Assembly: GCA_030077755.1 (NCBI GenBank)
Contig: JAQJZZ010000014.1
Location: 1,674,001-1,738,000 of the forward strand
Origin: Filosporella fistucella
Taxonomy: Eukaryota; Ascomycota; Leotiomycetes; Helotiales
Length of the DNA: 64,000 nt
Reading direction: 5' to 3'
The notes beneath the pieces were generated by a model. That model ran no database searches. It saw only the letters and a program-made list of their open reading frames with translations, and was not told the DNA's origin. A program made the translations under genes and the position numbers. Positions 1,288 through 59,833 of the stretch are shown one piece after another (the first letter of the stretch is position 1; every line of letters begins with the position of its first letter).

Positions 1288-4200
1288 TTAGCCATTTGTT
1301 GGAGAAATTCTAAAAGCATCCGTAATATGCTGGAGAAGTGGACGCTTATCGACAGGCAGAGGTGAAGCTGCATTGGAATTGGATACGACGTTGGAGGTTG
1401 TGTCGGCAACGTCACTTGTGATGCTTTGCTCCATAAGATCGGTTTCTGTAGTCATTCTTCCTTCGATGCCCGTCTGCAGGTCTTGCACCTCACATTGAGC
1501 ATCTTCACTTGGAGAGCTCTGTGACAGGTTGAAAGTTGATGCAGTGCCACCTTCTTGCGGGGCTGTATCCAATGCCTGCAGATTTGTCTGAGTAATGTTG
1601 TCGCTCTGTCTGTTTGGTTGGACTAGTATATTTTCGGTCTTCTCAGTGCCCATATCAAATTCTTTTGCAGCAGTGCGGAATGACTCGTTAGTTGTGCAGC
1701 GTTGCTCATCGAGACCTTCCATAACTGCCTCTGCTAACATGAGCTCATTTGAATAGTTCTCAGTGTCAACCCTAGCGACTTCACTTGTTGTGCTTGGTTC
1801 CTGACCAGACATCAAATCTGCATTTGCGTCTCTCGAAGTGCTTGACCCTGGGTCTTGCGCATCATGCATTTCGTTGCCGACCAAGGTGTTGTTTTGCTGC
1901 ACCAGTTCATCAATTTGCATGGACTTGCCTTCGCCACTTTGAAGATGAATACCAGCTTGCAATACTGCTGCATCAGACAGATCTGGCTGCCCAAGAACTG
2001 CCGCAATTTGAGGCTTCTCAACTTCGTTCGATGGCTGCAATATTTGACTTGAGGGAAGAGTTTGGGAGTTTGAAGAATTTTGAGAAATGCATACTTTGCC
2101 AATTTCTTCCTCTGCATTGCTGTTAGAGGAGGTTGGTTCCGCTGGAGTACCTGTAAGAGTACGGCGTACGAATTCTTTGGCCGTAATCGACGAACTTAAC
2201 AGTTCACGGCCAGGATTTGGACTCCTCGCAAGAGCATTCCAGAGAGACCCTCTAGCAAATGTAAGCTTTCCGAATTCCGGATTCTTTTGTATCTCAGTCT
2301 CAATCTCTCGCGTGATTCTGTTGGCGCGGTTTGATAGCACCCGAGATCCCAAAGAAGACAGCTCATCTGAGCCATTTGCAGAATGAACGATCACTGATTG
2401 GATAGTGAGGAGAGACTTTCAAGCAAATTAGCGAAACCATGTAACATAGAATGGGGATAACCTACTTTGCCCGATCGCCCTTCATCGGAGATTTCACCGC
2501 TCGAACCTCCACTTGGAATGCGGACATTCGGATTTGATCCTGACGCGTTTGTCGACCTCTTGGCAACCCGAATATTGTCTGTCGGAGATCGAGTATCTGA
2601 TTCAGGAGTTAAGGACTGAGCTTTGGTGTTTGCTCCAAGTATAGGTCTGCTGAACTGAGATTGAGGGGTGACTCTGGAAGGTCGCTGTTGATTACCTTGC
2701 AATGGAGTCAACTTTGGCCTACTAGAACCTGCGATTGAGGCATTTGGAGTCCCATTTGGAAGTTGATGTGGCTGTGGCTCAATATCATTTTCGGGAGATG
2801 GAGACACCAATTCTCTTTCACCTGCATCGTCATTTCGTTCGTTAGCTTGGGCATCTGTGGGTTTAAGAGGATTGATCTGCTGATGGGCCTGCTGAAGTGA
2901 AGCATTCGGTGGGTTTTGGTTAAGTTGATCTCTGGCTGGTGGTGTACGACGATAGCCACCAGGAGCAGACAAAGTGATTCGGCTGGCCGTCTGTTGAAGC
3001 CTAATTGGATTACTAGGACCTCGATTTGGAGGCGGCACATTCGTCATGCGGACTGGTATAGCTTGGCGTGATTGAAGATACTGCTGGGCCTGCTGCTGGG
3101 CCTGTTCTTGGGCTTTGATTCTCTGTTGTTCCTCCCATTTTCTAGGATTGGTCCTCTTGAGCTTCTCCTCGTCAGCCATTTTTTGCACTTCCACAAGTTC
3201 CTCTGCGGTGAGGTCATCTTTGTCCACAATTTCGAATGAATCCATTTCCACAATGGCTCGGATCGTAGGTTCCCTATCTTGAGTGTCCAATATCTTATCC
3301 AATACTTTCGGGTCCATTCCACGATATTCGGACAGGTTCTCTTGTGGAACCTCTTTTGGCTCGAATAGAAAATCGCCTAGCTTTTTGTGAGCGTAAGCTA
3401 GAGGATTCTTCTTGTCCACTACTCGAGATGCCAGTTGTGTTTTGAAAACGGTGCGGTTGTGTACTGAACTCTCAAAAGTCCCACCAGCAACGAATCTGTA
3501 GACGAAGGTCTCTTTTCGTTGACCAATACGATAGGCTCTTCCGACTGCTTGTTCTTCCATTATAGGATTGAACTTGAAATCGAAAATGACAACACGATTT
3601 GCACCATAAAAATTCAAACCAAGACCACCTGCTGTTGTCGAAATGAGGTAAATATCAGTGGAACCAGTATTGAACTGTTTCACGAGGTTCTGGCGTGTAC
3701 CCATCTTCGTTTTGCCGTCCAGTCTTCCAAATTTCCGACCTTGCCTATCAAAAAGAGCTTGCAAAAAATCGAGAGTTGGAAGTGATTGAGAAAAGATCAA
3801 ACATTTGTCCTCAGCTTCCTTCGCAGCGTCCAGGATTTGGCAGAGAATCTTGACCTTGAAGGAAAGCTCGACGGATAGCATATCGGGTTCCTTGCTGAAG
3901 ATTTCCGTTTCGGCATCCACAAGGGATTTCGAGACACCTACTTTCCAAACTGGTGCATTCATATCCACTGGGGCATCATCTGGATCTTCAACTGGTAGGG
4001 GTGTTGATATCCCCGAAGCAATTTCTTTTCTCGCTTCCTCTCTTCGCTCGTTAAGCTTGGCATTGAAGCATTGCGGATGATTGCAAAGGAGAGACAGTAC
4101 AGCTAGCCAGTGCCATAATGTTGCTTGCGTAACTTCACCACTCTTCGTTTGAGAGTAGGCATTGCCCTCCATCATAGAATTCACATAGGTTGTATATGCT

Positions 4201-9586: not shown

Positions 9587-11313
9587 ATGGCATCCAATGA
9601 AACCCCACCTTCAGACGAAACCTATCCTCCAAATTTGAGTGCATCGGAATCTCAACATTTACTCTCCACAATCAAAGACTGGTCAATAGCTCATGGGCTT
9701 GCTGTGAGACCACCTCTTTCTATAGTCTCATCCGAGGCAGATCCTCAAGGAATTTTAGCAACCACTGCTCCTGTCACGTTGTTTCCAAGTCCTTTTCCTC
9801 GAATATGCTTCGAGCAGGCAAAGTCGATTCAAAAGTCCTATAACAAGCTATATGCCGCAATAGCTCAGGATGAAAATTTTCTGCGAGACATTGTCCAAGA
9901 GTAAGTCGATTGTTGAAAATTTTGTAAAGTAGCCTGGTTTGAATGACGCCATTCGGCCTTCGGCATTCTGACAATAAACAGAATCATAGAAGTCGACGAG
10001 TTCATAGCCGAGCTATGGCAGGTACACTTGAAGGTTAAAGAGGAGGGATATGTTCAGGTAGAACATTTTCTATCTCATCTTGACCTTACTTACTCTGTTT
10101 AGAATCTATCTCTTGGTCTTTTCCGATCAGACTACATGGTCCACCAAGCTGCTAGTACTGCTCCAACTATCAAACAAGTGGAATTCAATACGATAGCATC
10201 TTCTTTTGGTGGACTATCTGCTCAGACATCAAAGCTTCACAAGTGAGTTCCTAGAACTTCCTGGGAGTCCTTTGGTTATCACGTGACTGACCCCGAATCA
10301 GGGCGCTTTCAATTAATGATTACCCTCTGTTAGAAGCTGGGCTTAGGAAGCTTGATTTGCCTGAAAATGAGAGTACTAAAGGGCTAGCTTCTGGCCTCCG
10401 TGCTGCTTTTGAGGCATATCCCGGATCTGAAATAGGGAAAGACAAGTGTATCATCTTTCTGGTTCAAAATCCGGAAAGAAATATATTTGACCAGCGACAT
10501 CTGGAGTATGAATTACACGAAAAACATATCCCAGTCTTTCGTCTACCTTTCGCAGATATCCTATCTCAAACTACCATAGCCGATACAGCAAAAAGGCAAC
10601 TTCTATATCACCTTCCCAGCAATCCCTCAAAAATATTCGAGGTTGCAGTGGTTTATTTTCGGTCTGGTTATGGACCAGGGGATTACGAGAATTCAGATGC
10701 ATGGAAAGCCCGTTTACAAATCGAGCGATCAAATGCTATAAAATGTCCAACCATTCTGACGCAACTGGCTGGTGCGAAGAAGGTTCAACAAGTCCTTGCA
10801 ACTCCAACCTCGCCATCCACTCCCTCGATATTGAAAAATTTCTTGAACACCACACAGACTGAGATTGACGATTTGGAAAAGACTTTCACAAATATCTTCC
10901 CTCTGGATGACTCTCCAGGAGGTCTTAAAGCCAAGAAGCTCGCTACTGATCCTGAACAGTGCAAAGGCTATGTATTAAAGCCTCAACGTGAAGGTGGAGG
11001 AAATAACATCTATCGTTCAGCCATTCCTCCATTTCTCAACTCTCTTCCAGAATCTCATTGGAAGTCGTACATTTTGATGGAAATTATTACCCCTCCACCC
11101 GTACACAACATTATTCTGCGAAATGGTGCACTGGAGCAAGGAGGTGTCATTTGTGAGCTTGGTGTTTATGGGACTTGTCTCTGGAATCAAGTGACGAAAG
11201 AAGTCATTCATAATGAGGAAGCCGGATATCTGTTACGAACGAAAGGGGATAAAAGTGAAGAAGGTGGTGTAGCTGCAGGATTTGGCAGCATGGATAGTGT
11301 GCGGCTGGTATGA
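9587..11313 (+). CDS. GSH2: Glutathione synthetase, 513 aa
   Basis: Exons 9587-9900, 9982-10057, 10103-10242 and 10302-11313 give 1542 nt in phase, with GTAAGT, GTAGAA and GTGAGT donors. The enzyme joins gamma-glutamylcysteine and glycine using ATP, the second step of cytosolic glutathione synthesis. Diagnostic eukaryotic GSH-synthetase motifs are KQVEFNTIASSFGGLS around the third junction, VVYFRSGYGPGDY, the ATP-grasp segment YVLKPQREGGGNNIY and the C-terminal AGFGSMDSVRLV ending at the stop. Length fits the family (about 470-520 aa). Start: first ATG in the frame (MASNETPP) after a non-coding leader; the upstream in-frame sequence looks like UTR. All key blocks are present, so it should be functional. 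It is transcribed divergently from the SNF2-like gene. Confidence 0.96.
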
Positions 11314-28894: not shown

Positions 28895-30663
28895 ATGAAG
28901 AAATCCGGATTCGAAGGTTCTGATTCTGTCGAAACTGATTTCTCAGGCATCACACATTCAGCGCTTAACCCGTTCCTGAGTACGGAGAACATAACGGAGT
29001 CCGCATCTGAGTGTGCATCAGACTTGCCTAGTATCAACACTACCAGCACGAACCAATTCCCAGACTCACCACCCAATCCACAATCAACCATAATCGCATT
29101 GCGACGTCGTCCTCCCTTTCACGACAGCCCTCAACGACATCAGCTCGCCGTCAAGGCACCGTTGAAACGGCGTCGCAAGGAGGTCAGTCTTCTGCCCGTA
29201 ATTACTCGGCATCCGCCATAAGTCCCAACCCGCGAATCCCATCGCCCAGTTTCCAACCGCCTTACCCATCTCCTTCGCCAATTGCCCCGAGTCCTGAACC
29301 ACAGGTGCGAGTCACAAGCCCGACGCGCTGGAGTCTACGAAACGCTTTCATCGGTGGTGGGAACCCGGATTTTGCTTCTCCTTTTCGCTCTCGATCTGGT
29401 ACAGGAGGAAGTAGTATTGCGAGAGGTCGACCGAGAAGACCTAGTGCAGCTCGTCTGTGGAATCCGAGTAATTCGACACCAAGAGGTCCGTCTAAAGGTG
29501 CTGAGAGAAGACAGAGGTCACCGGAGGTTATTGCAGTTCCACTTGAGCATCCTGATTTGAACTCACCCCGAGAGGGAGCTGCTGGTGGTGGTGATTATCC
29601 TTTATTGACATTACCGGAACAAAGACAGAGTCGACATTCATCTGCTAGAGCTAGTTTACAGATTGAAAGGAGTGGGAGTTCAGGTGAAAATACGAATAGG
29701 ATCTCGTTACCAAGGAGTGTTAGCATCGATTATTCAAGGAGGAAAAGTGGTGATTCACCAACGAGCTTGAAACTTGATAAAGGGAAGGGTATTGCGGTTG
29801 AGGATTCGCCGATTGTTGAAGGGAAGGTTACCGGGTTACGGAAAAGAGGTCAGAGTGCTTCAGGAGAAACATCTGGACTTTTTTTTGATAAAGGGAAGGG
29901 TAGAGCAAGAATGTCTGCGGATATTGAACGTGGACCGGATACACAGTATGAACCTGGTGGGACATCAAATCTTCCCAATGCCTCGGATACCTCTCTGCCA
30001 GCAGGTATTGGTCCTGCTATGTCGGATAATACATCAATAATAGGATCAGATGGACCTCCGATAGATCCAGCGGAAGAATGGGGACCTCAACATCCTTGCT
30101 TTCCACATATGAATCCTCACGTTCCGCTATCATCACCTTTATATCAGACTACACGCATAATTCGGATCCGACGAGACTGGATGATTGAGGGGGATTTGGC
30201 ACCTACATTTTCGAATCTCTACCCGGAAATTTTGGACCCAGCTGGGGTTTCTGAGCAGGATTTCAGGATATTGGTGGAGAGAATAAATAATGAATTGGTA
30301 CCAGCATTTAGTCCCTGGGGTTTGAGGAATATTGTTGATGGCGTATTGGGATTGTTGACAGGATGGATATGGGATGACATGGGGTTTACGGCTGTGAAGA
30401 GTCGGCTAAGTAATTTAGAGAGATATCTGGAAGACTGGAATAGAGAGATGGAGGGGAGGAGTAAGGAAGGACCTGGTGCTGCACCGAGGATTGTTCCATT
30501 GAGGAGGACGGGATATATGAATGTGAGTATGCCTATGAATTGGTAGAATGAAGCTAATATTCTGCAGCTTGACATTCAGGTTCCTGATCCAGAGATCTCG
30601 TATCCTTCGTCTATTCCTCCAGACGAGCGTACTGCTACTGGTCTTTCCAGAATCTCACAATAA
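28895..30663 (+). CDS. ERF4: Erf4/Golgin-A7-like subunit of Ras palmitoyltransferase, 556 aa
   Basis: Proposed exons 28895-29010, 29064-30522 and 30568-30663 (1671 nt in phase). The last intron is clear (GTGAGT ... GCTAAT ... CTGCAG). The first (GTGTGC donor, TTCCCAG acceptor) is inferred, because the frame opened by MKKSGFEGSDSV must shift to the frame holding SSSLSRQPSTTSARR. Residues ~1-390 are Ser/Pro/Arg-rich and disordered. The C-terminal ~130 residues match the Erf4/GOLGA7 domain: TRIIRIRRDWMIEGDLAP, FRILVERINNELVPAFSPW, LTGWIWDD, LERYLEDWN, RIVPLRRTGYMN and, across the last junction, LDIQVPDPEIS. In yeast Erf4 partners the DHHC enzyme Erf2 to palmitoylate Ras at the ER. Domain call is strong; start exon uncertain. 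The protein is much longer than yeast Erf4 (237 aa). Confidence 0.8.
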
Positions 30664-42986: not shown

Positions 42987-45245
42987 TTTTGCGGATGATC
43001 GTGGTGTGCGAGGATTCGATTGATGTCTGCAGATTTGATCTTCTCGAATTCGTGAACTGTGAAACTATGCAATCTGCAAGTAGTTGATTGTTGTCGAGGT
43101 GCGTGATGTATTAACAAGCCACCAATTTGTGTATTTATCCAAAGGACAGGCAATGTCACACTGGAAAAGTGGCAGAAGCGACAGTGGTGGGAGTAGTGGA
43201 CACGGGATCAGAAACAGTCCAATACGGTTGATACGATCCTGGAAGAGATGATCGTATTTGTCTCGTTGGTGGAAGGAAAGGAAGGTCCGAGGTTGGTGGG
43301 TGGAAGAGTGGGTTGGAGTCAAGAGATAACGCGGATGCAGGCCAGGAAGGGATATGGTGGAGGCAGGAGAGTTGGAGGGAAGTCAGTTCATGCGGAAGGA
43401 GAATTGTAGGTAATGCGATCGATGGTTTGGTATGACGGAGACGGATCAGACCAGTTCGAGAGTGTGCTTTATGAGGGAATTTGTAGAGTCAAGTTGTAGA
43501 ATGGAATTAGGATCGAGTCGCGGCTTGCTGGGCAGGTACTGGGTATTTGATCTGTGTTGAATTTTAATATTATTGTTAGTTTCTGGACATCCGGTAACCC
43601 AACAACCAGTGCAAGTCAGTCATCTCAATCAAGTCAGGGCCAAGGCACGCCACCACACCTGCATTTATCCCCTTGTACCAGCCCCTGCCAAAGATCCAAT
43701 GTCTTGACTCTTGAGTTCCATTGTCTTTGGCCGGGCCTATCCCATCTCTCTCCTTTTTCTCTCGATGCGCCAACTACTGCAATGTCTGGGACCATAACCA
43801 CCACTCTCCCACCACTTCCACCACCATCACCACATTTCCTGGAGAAATCGGCTTTACAAAGACGCATCCCGAAAACCCTGGCATCCTGCTCCCTGCTCTT
43901 CCCTCCACACCCAGTCATCTTCACCACTCTCTCCTTCCCAAACCTCACACAGTCTGCGCCACGATTTCGGTGGATGAAACTTTTTCTCTCGGGTTTTGGC
44001 TAAAGTGCCGCCGGCCAGCCATTTCCATGTCTTACGCGGCAATAAAGCACGCGCGGAAACACGACAGCCCTGAGTGGCAACCTCATCAAGCGCTGCTGAT
44101 TACGAGTGAGCAAACAAACTCTCTGCGGTGTCACAGACCATGGATCTGTATTTTGGGTGACCGGTTAGCAGACCAGATGAGGCCTTGACAGATGCTCGTT
44201 GAAACGTTATATTCGGATATAAATAGCAGAACCCTTTGTGATCTTCACAACCGCCAAGTTTCACCCCGGATTGTAAGCCAATTGAATGCTTTCCTCAACA
44301 AGTTTCCGCTGCTTAAATTTGGGTGAGGCCACCGACATGACACCGTCTCAATTGTATGGAGTTAGTTCAACTCTACTTTACCGCTAGGATTTGGTTCCAG
44401 GCCCAGAATCGGTTGATTGATTCTAGACTGTTGGATCTTCATAAGGGATATTTCGGATATCGTGACTACAATTTAAAGCTATGAAGCTTTTCATGGGGGT
44501 TTGAGGTGGAGATCAGACCGATATTTCTGATACCGGAACTGGCCAAGGATCTTGGAGATGGGTGATCATGTATTCAAGGTTTGGGCTTCAGGAAACTTTG
44601 AGAAATATCCCACTGATGTCACTTTGTATCAAAAAGAGGTAGATCCTTGTCATGAGACCTTAGAGTGGTCGATAATGACCGTTCTTAAAGATGACAGGAG
44701 CTTTATTGAATGAACGATGAGTTTGTTAAAAGTGAGATGTACGGAAATCTCGGATGATAACATCGAACGCAACGAGGTATCGGGAGGGAACGGGCGTGAC
44801 GAGCGAAGGGGACGTGAATGCCGAGAGTATGAAGCAAGAAATCTAGGTCGTTGTGAAGCTTGAATCTCCCCAGATGCGTCTCAATCTCACAGACAATATT
44901 CGACATCGCCAAGTATGGGGTTGCTTGAAGTTTTCGATTTGGGTCTATGCGGGTCTGATTCGACTGTGAGTGTGAAGGTGGAAGCCTCCTTCGAGGATCA
45001 AATTTTGCTATATAGATGTATGACGGGTTGCCATATCCCATCCAACCATTGCCAAAGCCCAGTGATTACAAGAAGGTCAACGAGAAGCATGTAGACGTGA
45101 ATTCTGATATATTGAAACTCAGCCAGGTGTATTATCGATAAGGGCTGGAAGCGGAGCTCGCCTAATTGACACGCACAACCTCGGCAAGGGGTCAGCAGGT
45201 TTAGTTATTCAAATAGCTGCCCCGGTGACAACAAACCACATCAAA
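42987..45245. other. Intergenic region upstream of the BAR gene and the tRNA gene
   Basis: 2.3 kb with no supported protein gene. The stretch 43330-44000 is rich in CCACC/CTCC on the plus strand; ORFs there (for example 43554-44003) overlap on both strands and are composition artefacts. The part adjoining 42987 should hold the BAR-gene promoter. Confidence 0.4.
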
Positions 45246-45283
45246 GACTTTGTGGCTCAGTTGGTTAGAGCGTTGGTCTCATA

Positions 45284-45316
45284 CGCAGTATGATGAGTTT
45301 GGTAACAAACTTGGCA
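45284..45316 (+). other. tRNA intron 1, canonical position 37/38 (33 nt)
   Basis: Lies directly 3' of position 37. It contains GTATGA, complementary to the anticodon-loop bases TCATAC, the usual anticodon-intron pairing. It also contains a perfect 6-bp hairpin AGTTTG/CAAACT capped by a GTAA (GNRA-type) tetraloop. It should be cut by the tRNA splicing endonuclease. The exact cut is ambiguous by one A. Confidence 0.8.
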
Positions 45317-45325
45317 ATCCAAAGG

Positions 45326-45375
45326 GTAAGTTTAATCATGTCACACACAACAACTTGTAACTAACAAGTAATTAG
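45326..45375 (+). other. Second, spliceosomal-looking intron in the tRNA variable loop (50 nt)
   Basis: Begins GTAAGTTTAA, ends AAGTAATTAG, and carries ACTAAC (45360-45365), a perfect RCTRAC branch motif about 10 nt before the terminal AG. Removal rejoins AAAGG to TCGAG and gives a normal variable loop and T-arm. A 6-bp hairpin ACTTGT/ACAAGT (45353-45369) overlaps the branch motif. The cut point is ambiguous by one G. Length and signals match the protein-gene introns in this window. Confidence 0.7.
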
Positions 45376-45413
45376 TCGAGAGTTCGAGTCTCTCCAAGGT
45401 CAGCAAATCCAAA

Positions 45414-45419
45414 TTTTTT
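45414..45419 (+). terminator. RNA polymerase III T-run terminator
   Basis: Six consecutive T residues 12 bases after the tRNA 3' end, the standard Pol III stop signal. This supports a Pol III unit covering both introns. Confidence 0.8.
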
Positions 45420-46644
45420 GCATCTGTTTTCCTTTTCAAAATTTGCATGTCTTCTTTCGTGAAACAAACTATTCTACTTTTGTTTAGCCGAGCTATTCCC
45501 ATAGCCCCCTTCCAAGCCTGAGGTAGGTCATATTTTTAATATCAATCACATTGTATCCTCGTTATCAAGAGTTTTGATTCTGTCCCTCAATCTTAGAAAT
45601 CAAGTTCTGACTATTTCATTATCCATGAGAGCAAATATACTAAGGTTCTTCAGGTATATAGAGCCTATCGCCAGCCCATTGCAACTTTGCAGGCATTCCT
45701 GACACGAAAATTGTGCTAACTTACTTCCAGCCGTTCCCAGGCGGCGATGTTGGTTGTAGACATAAGTTTACTACGGTTGTTTGTAACTTAAACTTTGTTC
45801 AAGATCGTCAATCAATGTCAATCGCAGAGCCTAAGCAATATCAACGATGCATTGTCCGCTTCCCTCGAAGCGTACAATAAATGGATGGCTGAGGGATAAC
45901 AAGGTAAATAGGCCACCCCTATCAACAATAGCATGCTTTACTCTCAATTTACTGCTATCCTTGGCTTTGTTGGGACTTTTGTTTTGGCGCAAGCTTCCTG
46001 TATCCGTCTTAGATGTGTTTTCTAGATTAGCAGCGCCACCGGTTCATTATCTAGTTATCTAGCATTATTTGGCACTTTTATCTTCCTTTGTCGGATCAAA
46101 TTTATAATTATTGTATTCAGCGGGAACATCTAAACAGATAAGATGCGTGGGCCATCGCCGAGCCTTTTGAGATGCTCCATTTTGAGCCTAAGCAAGCTAG
46201 TCCTCTTTTTCTGAAATGTTTATGATGGGAAAATTTTCCTCGATACAGTTGCTATTTATTCGAAGGGCATACGATCCCTCCTTGACGCTCCGTATCACAG
46301 CAACACGACCGCCAACTTAGAACAATAGACACGAAAAGGAGAGATAATAGTAAGTGTTCAATACTTGACTTCCCCGCCATTTCGGAAACATACAGCGCGA
46401 GTAAACGCTGACTATGAAAGAGGGTTCGAATACCTTAGTGTGATAGATGCAGAAACTCGACCACCTTCTCCACATTCTGACGACTCCTCTACTAGCGATA
46501 GAGGTGAGCCATACAATCTGCAGCCAAGACCAGAACCGACTATACCTTTAAATCACCAGTCGAAACTCAATCCATCTCCAGGGGTGGGAGGAAGAGGCTT
46601 AGTTCGAGCAATGATAAATGTCCAGTCACAGCAGTCCCTGATTG
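45420..46644. other. Intergenic region / uncertain 5' part of next gene
   Basis: 1.2 kb between the tRNA and the hypothetical gene. An open plus-strand frame without a good early ATG (46365-46706) overlaps the next CDS in another frame. It contains a well-formed intron-like stretch starting GTAAGTG at ~46350 and ending ACATACAG at ~46376, so a spliced 5' UTR is likely. Confidence 0.4.

Positions 46645-58537: not shown

Positions 58538-59833
<1,296 letters not shown>

What the first reader, a model, noticed from the sequence alone, without database searches (positions are those of the whole stretch)
45246..45402. tRNA-Met gene interrupted by a second, spliceosome-type intron in the variable loop
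The gene gives a perfect elongator tRNA-Met only if two insertions are removed: a normal 33-nt intron at 37/38, and a 50-nt insertion between variable-loop bases (45326-45375). The second insertion begins GTAAGT, has ACTAAC about 10 nt before its end, and ends TAG, like the 42-60 nt introns of protein genes in this same window (GSH2, ELP3, LSC1, AP-2 mu). Boxes A and B and the T6 terminator argue it is Pol III transcribed, so a spliceosomal-looking intron in a Pol III tRNA would need an unusual removal route: spliceosome acting on a Pol III transcript, a Pol II transcript, or tRNA endonuclease using a non-canonical site. I know ectopic tRNA introns in archaea and some algae; I do not know of a GT-AG one in a fungal tRNA variable loop.
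Basis: partly seen in the sequence, partly recalled or inferred. Interest (0 to 1): 0.93.

Follow-up and report, generated by a model that had tools for sequence, protein, structure and literature searches.

The report
Spliceosomal introns inside fungal tRNA genes
In this mould the genes for the tRNA that carries methionine are interrupted by an intron of the kind that belongs in protein genes, and both copies found have one, so its protein synthesis probably needs the mRNA-splicing machine to make a tRNA.

Summary
Window 45246-45402 is an elongator tRNA-Met(CAT) gene (Rfam tRNA, 44.6 bits) with a normal 33-nt intron at 37/38 and a 50-nt GTAAGT...CTAAC...TAG insert between bases 46 and 47. (1) Exon probes with up to 3 mismatches find one other elongator tRNA-Met gene in the genome. 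It has a GT-CTAAC-AG insert at the same base; exons are conserved, two acceptor pairs changed on both sides, insert interiors diverged. (2) One of two tRNA-Cys(GCA) genes found has a 56-nt insert of this type at 53/54; the other has none. (3) The U6 gene holds three GT-AG inserts, whereas 27 of 27 listed 5S genes and the one SRP RNA match show none. None of 52 other tRNA matches carries the signature. Best explanation: spliceosomal introns in Pol III pre-tRNAs, removed in the nucleus, with tRNA endonuclease removing the 37/38 intron. Removal is inferred; no RNA data were available. Ten searches of open full texts (numbers in the Full report section) listed no spliceosomal intron in a tRNA.

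The parts
45246..45402 (+). elongator tRNA-Met(CAT) gene, 157 nt with two introns (74 nt after both are removed)
   Evidence: RF00005 44.6 bits; stem check
45246..45283 (+). 5' exon (acceptor 5' strand to A37)
   Evidence: probe match
45253..45264 (+). A box TGGCTCAGTTGG
   Evidence: sequence; box consensus recalled
45284..45316 (+). canonical 37/38 intron, 33 nt; pairs with the anticodon loop (TCATAC/GTATGA; TCATAT/ATATGA in the second copy)
45317..45325 (+). middle exon ATCCAAAGG (bases 38-46)
45326..45375 (+). spliceosomal-type intron between bases 46 and 47: GTAAGT ... TAG, 50 nt, no T run longer than 3
45361..45365 (+). branch-site motif CTAAC, starting 15 nt before the intron end (15 in the second Met gene, 16 in the Cys gene)
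45376..45402 (+). 3' exon (U47, C48, T arm, acceptor 3' strand, discriminator A)
45382..45390 (+). B box GTTCGAGTC
   Evidence: sequence; box consensus recalled
45211..45216 (+). upstream TATA-like element AAATAG; a TATA-like match lies at -55..-25 in 28 of 44 nuclear tRNA genes held, against 3 of 44 at -115..-85
45414..45419 (+). T6 Pol III terminator
58699..59693 (+). comparator: region holding six LSC1 introns (58699-58756, 58786-58840, 58968-59019, 59083-59130, 59157-59205, 59650-59693; 44-58 nt)
   Evidence: spliced alignment to P0154 and P0158
9901..10301 (+). comparator: region holding three GSH2 introns (9901-9981, 10058-10102, 10243-10301; 45-81 nt)
   Evidence: spliced alignment to P0241 and P0244
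30523..30567 (+). comparator: ERF4 intron, 45 nt
   Evidence: spliced alignment to P0001

Best explanation
A U2-type spliceosomal intron sits in the variable loop (46/47) of both elongator tRNA-Met genes found in a fungus of the order Helotiales, and another in the T arm (53/54) of one of the two tRNA-Cys genes found. RNA polymerase III transcribes each gene from its internal A and B boxes and stops at the T run. In the nucleus the spliceosome removes the GT-AG intron by the same signals as in mRNA introns, as it would have to do for the U6 RNA of this genome. The tRNA splicing endonuclease and ligase remove the ordinary 37/38 intron, probably afterwards. The introns most likely arose by reverse splicing into a Pol III RNA. 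Shown: gene structure, site, signals, sharing by both Met genes, conserved exons with compensatory pair changes, GT-AG inserts in U6. Inferred: transcription, removal by the spliceosome, order of events, origin.
For: Both elongator Met genes found have the insert at the same base. The splice signals are kept (GTAAG; CTAAC starting 15 nt before the end; TAG) while the interiors differ. Exons differ at 4 of 74 bases, all four forming two acceptor pairs changed on both sides, as expected of working tRNAs. A Cys gene carries an insert of the same class at another site, with 21 of 21 pairs formed and 7 of 8 changed pairs changed on both sides against its insert-free paralogue. The strict signature is in 0 of 52 other tRNA matches held and in 67 of 4,000,000 random segments. 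Inserts resemble protein-gene introns of the window in length, donor letters beyond GT, and branch distance. U6 has three GT-AG inserts; joining its exons raises the alignment score to the Rfam consensus from 83 to 122. A and B boxes, T runs at +12, +6 and +32, and a TATA-like element in both Met genes point to Pol III. No T run above 3 in any of 6 inserts of Met, Cys and U6 genes, against runs of four in 5 of 10 protein introns (Fisher p 0.09, suggestive only). [quoted passage not shown]
Against: No RNA evidence of removal. No other species could be compared. 27 of 27 listed 5S matches and the one SRP RNA match show no insert, so it is not general to Pol III genes. The tRNA inventory is incomplete: 63 of 1,940 candidates were scored. 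One U6 insert ends AAG and 1 of 3 U6 inserts meets the strict signature. Pattern searches built round CTAAC-AG gave fewer matches than their backward controls (23 against 71; 31 against 80), so such motifs alone carry no weight; the tRNA context does. The TATA-like pattern did not match the interrupted Cys gene.
Confidence: 0.85

Rival explanations
1. The insert is a non-canonical tRNA intron cut out by the tRNA splicing endonuclease, as in archaea, red algae and nucleomorphs; the GT-AG look is coincidence.
For: Non-canonical tRNA introns at places such as 45/46 and 53/54 are known in archaea, and in D, T and anticodon arms of nucleomorph tRNAs and in C. merolae (PMC4090602, passages).
Against: The inserts carry donor, branch and acceptor motifs at mRNA-like distances; the signature occurs in 67 of 4,000,000 random segments, and the second Met gene, found by exons only, has it. 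In a crude scan no 4-bp helix of a bulge-helix-bulge motif recurs at the same place: one in C13, none in C4, one in Cys. That scan also found none at the known 37/38 introns of both Met genes, so it is weak.
Confidence: 0.05
2. The genes are transcribed by Pol II (alone or as well), and the spliceosome acts on that capped transcript.
For: Would make spliceosomal removal ordinary.
Against: Complete A and B boxes, a T run of at least 6 after all three genes, and in both Met genes the TATA-like element seen in 28 of 44 nuclear tRNA genes held. U6, whose homologues are Pol III genes, has inserts of this kind. Open frames of 50 aa or more overlap the tRNA on the plus strand at 45108-45293 and on the minus strand at 45341-45535; neither was searched for homologues, and no evident protein gene spans the tRNA.
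Confidence: 0.06
3. The genes are pseudogenes, or the insert stays in the tRNA as an enlarged variable loop or T loop.
For: Predicted folds of the unspliced Met transcripts keep acceptor and T-arm pairs (the C4 gene was entered there two bases short).
Against: These are the only two elongator Met genes found, so at least one should work. Stems are kept by compensatory changes. A retained insert would not need conserved splice signals while its interior drifts, and at Cys 53/54 it would enlarge the T loop about ninefold.
Confidence: 0.04

Closest known systems
mRNA-type introns in U6 snRNA genes (Schizosaccharomyces pombe; other fungi by the title of Canzler et al. 2016, seen in a reference list only)
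   Same: mRNA-type intron in a Pol III RNA gene, removed by splicing, thought to arise by reverse splicing (PMC10484740, passages). This genome's own U6 has three GT-AG inserts.
   Different: Here the host is a tRNA, which is no part of the spliceosome and also holds a second, protein-spliced intron and internal promoters.
Spliceosomal introns in fungal U3 snoRNA genes
   Same: Normal spliceosomal introns in a structured RNA gene, present in one paralogue and absent from another in some species, Leotiomycetes among them (PMC5832005, passages)
   Different: Not a tRNA; [quoted passage not shown]
mRNA-type introns in fungal nuclear 18S rDNA (Rogers et al. 1993; title seen in the reference list of PMC11782384)
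   Same: mRNA-type intron in a structural RNA of fungi
   Different: Pol I transcript; not examined here (one search failed)
Non-canonical tRNA introns of archaea, Cyanidioschyzon and nucleomorphs
   Same: Extra tRNA introns outside 37/38, several per tRNA; elongator Met and Cys tRNA genes of the Guillardia theta nucleomorph have three each (PMC4090602, passages)
   Different: Attributed to tRNA endonuclease or an unknown route; the word stem 'spliceosom' does not occur in that review's text
Canonical eukaryotic 37/38 tRNA introns
   Same: Present in the same genes; cut by the tRNA endonuclease
   Different: Different site, structure-defined, no GT-AG or branch motif

Membership tests
U2-type spliceosomal intron | 5' GT donor of the local consensus, YAG acceptor, branch motif about 10-20 nt upstream | tested here: met
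   3 of 3 tRNA inserts (one an unbiased find), 7 of 10 protein introns, 67 of 4,000,000 random segments, 0 of 52 other tRNA matches
U2-type spliceosomal intron | length within the range of the host's own introns | tested here: met
   49, 50 and 56 nt against 44-81 nt in 10 protein introns; the aligner allowed only GT-AG introns of 38-130 nt
U2-type spliceosomal intron | signals conserved, interior free to drift between paralogues | tested here: met
   two Met genes, one pair only
U2-type spliceosomal intron | removed by the spliceosome through a lariat | not testable with these tools
   no RNA data
BHB-type non-canonical tRNA intron | bulge-helix-bulge structure at the exon-intron junctions | tested here: inconclusive
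   no shared 4-bp helix across the three genes, but the scan was crude and found none at two known 37/38 introns
functional elongator tRNA-Met gene | cloverleaf, CAT anticodon, A and B boxes, terminator | tested here: met
functional elongator tRNA-Met gene | stems under selection (compensatory change) | tested here: met
   2 of 2 changed pairs changed on both sides
Pol III transcript | transcribed by Pol III | tested here: inconclusive
   promoter and terminator signals only
tRNA pseudogene | decayed stems, or an intact functional copy elsewhere | tested here: not met
   stems intact; no insert-free elongator Met gene found at up to 3 mismatches

The most novel reading that the evidence does not exclude
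Spliceosomal introns have invaded nuclear tRNA genes in this fungus and are fixed in both elongator tRNA-Met genes, so every internal methionine in every protein depends on a tRNA that must pass through two unrelated splicing machines, the spliceosome and then the tRNA endonuclease. Translation is thereby tied directly to the spliceosome, and the sites mark past reverse splicing into Pol III RNAs.
Probability: 0.8. Interest if true: 0.95.

Novelty: new variant of a known kind. Interest (0 to 1): 0.92.

Why it matters
tRNA introns are taught as the class that the spliceosome does not touch; a 2026 review files tRNA splicing as spliceosome-independent (PMC13149111, passages). A tRNA that needs both machines would break that division. 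It would show the spliceosome acting on a short, uncapped Pol III RNA that is not part of itself, and would give datable sites of intron gain. It also warns that tRNA annotation is blind here: the session's ARAGORN setting found no tRNA in the window, and with anticodon-loop introns allowed it reported both Met genes with one wrong 75- or 79-nt intron and missed the Cys gene.

Tried and rejected
IMG/VR scan for the exon-insert pattern: 3 matches; read by eye, none a tRNA of this type (two are one coding-like stretch, one a bacterial-type tRNA). Pattern CTAACN{3,15}AGN{5,8}GTTCRANNC in the own genome: 23 matches, 71 in the backward control; 3 are tRNAs (2 Met, 1 Cys); the other 20 gave no RF00005 match (3, 17). 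Pattern CTAACN{3,15}AGTTCRANNC: 31 matches, 80 in the backward control; the same 3 tRNAs, 5 already checked through, and 23 new ones fetched (20, 3), none with both an A box and a pairing T stem or, for the last 3, none with an A box. These two patterns see only inserts near 45-48 and 53/54 with a CTAAC branch; inserts elsewhere would be missed. Of the 54 RF00005 matches, 52 were scanned for the signature: 0 strict matches, 3 loose ones that are ordinary tRNA letters; the other two are the window gene and one mitochondrial match. An initiator tRNA-Met probe recalled from Neurospora gave 0 matches at up to 3 mismatches: divergent, or itself interrupted; unresolved. rDNA was not examined (one search failed). 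A first ERF4 'intron' at 28999-29063 was dropped as an artefact (no donor or branch consensus). The Fisher test on T runs was not significant. A covariance model of 15 spliced tRNAs was built but could not be used on this genome.

Full report
What was checked. Rfam's tRNA model covers window 45246-45402 from first to last position at 44.6 bits, needing one insert in the anticodon loop and one in the variable region. The coordinates of the finding are exact. The window is G000:C13:1674001-1738000 of a 45.77-Mb genome in 19 contigs. Best named protein matches are Helotiales: ERF4 75-77% to Rhexocercosporidium, Cadophora and Oculimacula, GSH2 79% to Mollisia scopiformis. The order names are recalled.

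The gene. Removing 45284-45316 (37/38 intron) and 45326-45375 (GT-AG insert) leaves a 74-nt elongator tRNA-Met with 20 of 21 stem pairs; the open pair is U31-U39. The 37/38 intron can pair with the anticodon loop in both Met genes, with different but matching letters (TCATAC/GTATGA and TCATAT/ATATGA; sequences, folds).

The second gene. A DNA search of the genome gave one more place. Probes of 32 nt (5' exon) and 22 nt (3' exon), up to 3 mismatches, each match two places, the same two, with 0 in the control; the tool calls its counts lower bounds. The second gene, C4:243644-243804, has a 49-nt insert at the same base (C4:243729-243777). Exons differ at 4 of 74 bases; all four make two acceptor pairs changed on both sides. 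The inserts keep GTAAG, CTAAC starting 15 nt before the end, and TAG; the rest differs by substitutions and small gaps. That is what two working genes with an intron would show, and not what decay would show. This gene was found through its exons, so its splice signals are an unbiased test.

A second tRNA family. The pattern search brought up tRNA-Cys(GCA) at C15:2033899-2034037: RF00005 33.5 bits, a short 37/38 intron (11 nt by my reading), and a 56-nt GTAAGC...CTAAC...CAG insert between 53 and 54 (C15:2033962-2034017). Because the pattern asked for CTAAC and AG, only its donor and its site in an intact tRNA are independent evidence. The insert falls inside the B box, but the AG of the acceptor restores the box in the DNA (AGTTCGAACC). 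A Cys probe with up to 3 mismatches finds two genes: this one and C9:3169519, which lacks the insert (L032). Between the two, 8 of 21 pairs changed, 7 on both sides, and all 21 pair in each.

How common. Of 54 RF00005 matches in the genome (63 of 1,940 candidates scored), 52 other than the window gene and one mitochondrial match were scanned: none has GTRNG...CTRAY...YAG, while the two Met genes and the Cys gene do. Neither the second Met gene nor the Cys gene was among the 54, so further interrupted tRNAs may be missing too.

The same class as mRNA introns. My spliced alignment of Helotiales proteins to the window gave ten introns (three GSH2, six LSC1, one ERF4), 44-81 nt; one further ERF4 row was dropped. 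The program admits only GT-AG introns of 38-130 nt, so those ends and limits are built in; donor letters beyond GT and the branch are not. Seven of the ten meet the strict signature, against 67 of 4,000,000 random segments. Branch-like motifs start 12-16 nt from the end in nine protein introns and 23 in one; 15, 15 and 16 in the tRNA inserts.

Other Pol III genes. U6 (C7:2968184-2968282, minus) scores only 46.7 bits because it is interrupted (47 of 3,079 candidates scored). Three GT-AG inserts of 49, 54 and 51 nt have CTAAC or CTAAT; removing them raises an alignment score to the Rfam consensus from 83 to 122. The SRP RNA search gave one match, 275 nt for 293 model positions at 141 bits, hence no room for an insert. 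The 5S search listed 27 matches, each 120 nt (47 of 1,964 candidates scored). So the invasion is selective.

Promoters and ends. A TATA-like element lies at -55..-25 in 28 of 44 nuclear tRNA genes held, against 3 of 44 at -115..-85; both Met genes have it, the interrupted Cys gene does not by this pattern. T runs of 6, 8 and 7 follow at +12, +6 and +32. None of the six inserts in Met, Cys and U6 genes has a T run above 3, against runs of four in 5 of 10 protein introns; p = 0.09, only a hint that Pol III terminators are avoided.

Mechanism. The simplest account is Pol III transcription, nuclear removal of the GT-AG intron by the spliceosome, and removal of the 37/38 intron by tRNA endonuclease and ligase. 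The order is inference from the cytoplasmic site of tRNA splicing in budding yeast (recalled). Reverse splicing as origin is inferred from the same idea for U6 (PMC10484740, passages).

Literature. Ten full-text searches over 5.39 million open papers listed no paper on a spliceosomal intron in a tRNA gene; only listings and abstract openings were seen for most. Passages were read in seven papers. Canzler et al. 2016 on U6 introns is not held. Subscription papers and preprints are not covered.

Limits. No RNA data; no relatives' DNA; a partial tRNA inventory, so the share of interrupted tRNAs is unknown, and an elongator Met gene with more than 3 changes in both probes could be missed.

Noticed in passing
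L054 about 1382-1639, minus strand (G000:C7, around 2968184-2968282): U6 snRNA gene with three GT-AG inserts at L054 1575-1623, 1481-1534 and 1418-1468 (49, 54, 51 nt); one ends AAG.
   Followed up: yes
L055 (G000:C6:601060-601162, +): A divergent, uninterrupted U6-like sequence keeping ACAGAGA and with TATATAAAT upstream; 44 bits, not listed. Possible second U6 or a pseudogene.
   Followed up: partly
L034 301-459 and 599-700 (G000:C14:2021080-2021838): Two neighbouring tRNA-like genes with shared D arms and long inserts in the anticodon arm; isotype unclear.
   Followed up: partly
G000: No initiator tRNA-Met found with a recalled Neurospora probe at up to 3 mismatches; it may be divergent or itself interrupted.
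   Followed up: partly
upstream of window 45246 (-33 to -23) and of L072 1398 (-24 to -14): The interrupted Met and Cys genes share the motif ATAGCTGCCCC just upstream.
   Followed up: no
window 45326-45375: The insert holds a perfect ACTTGT/ACAAGT hairpin with the branch motif partly in its loop; those letters are not in the second copy.
   Followed up: no
L041 301-387 (G000:C13:1596301-1596387): tRNA-like match with two broken acceptor pairs and no T run of four within 60 nt downstream; looks like a tRNA pseudogene.
   Followed up: no
G000:C8 (37,812 bases): Looks like the mitochondrial contig: a dense tRNA cluster at 7-18 kb.
   Followed up: no
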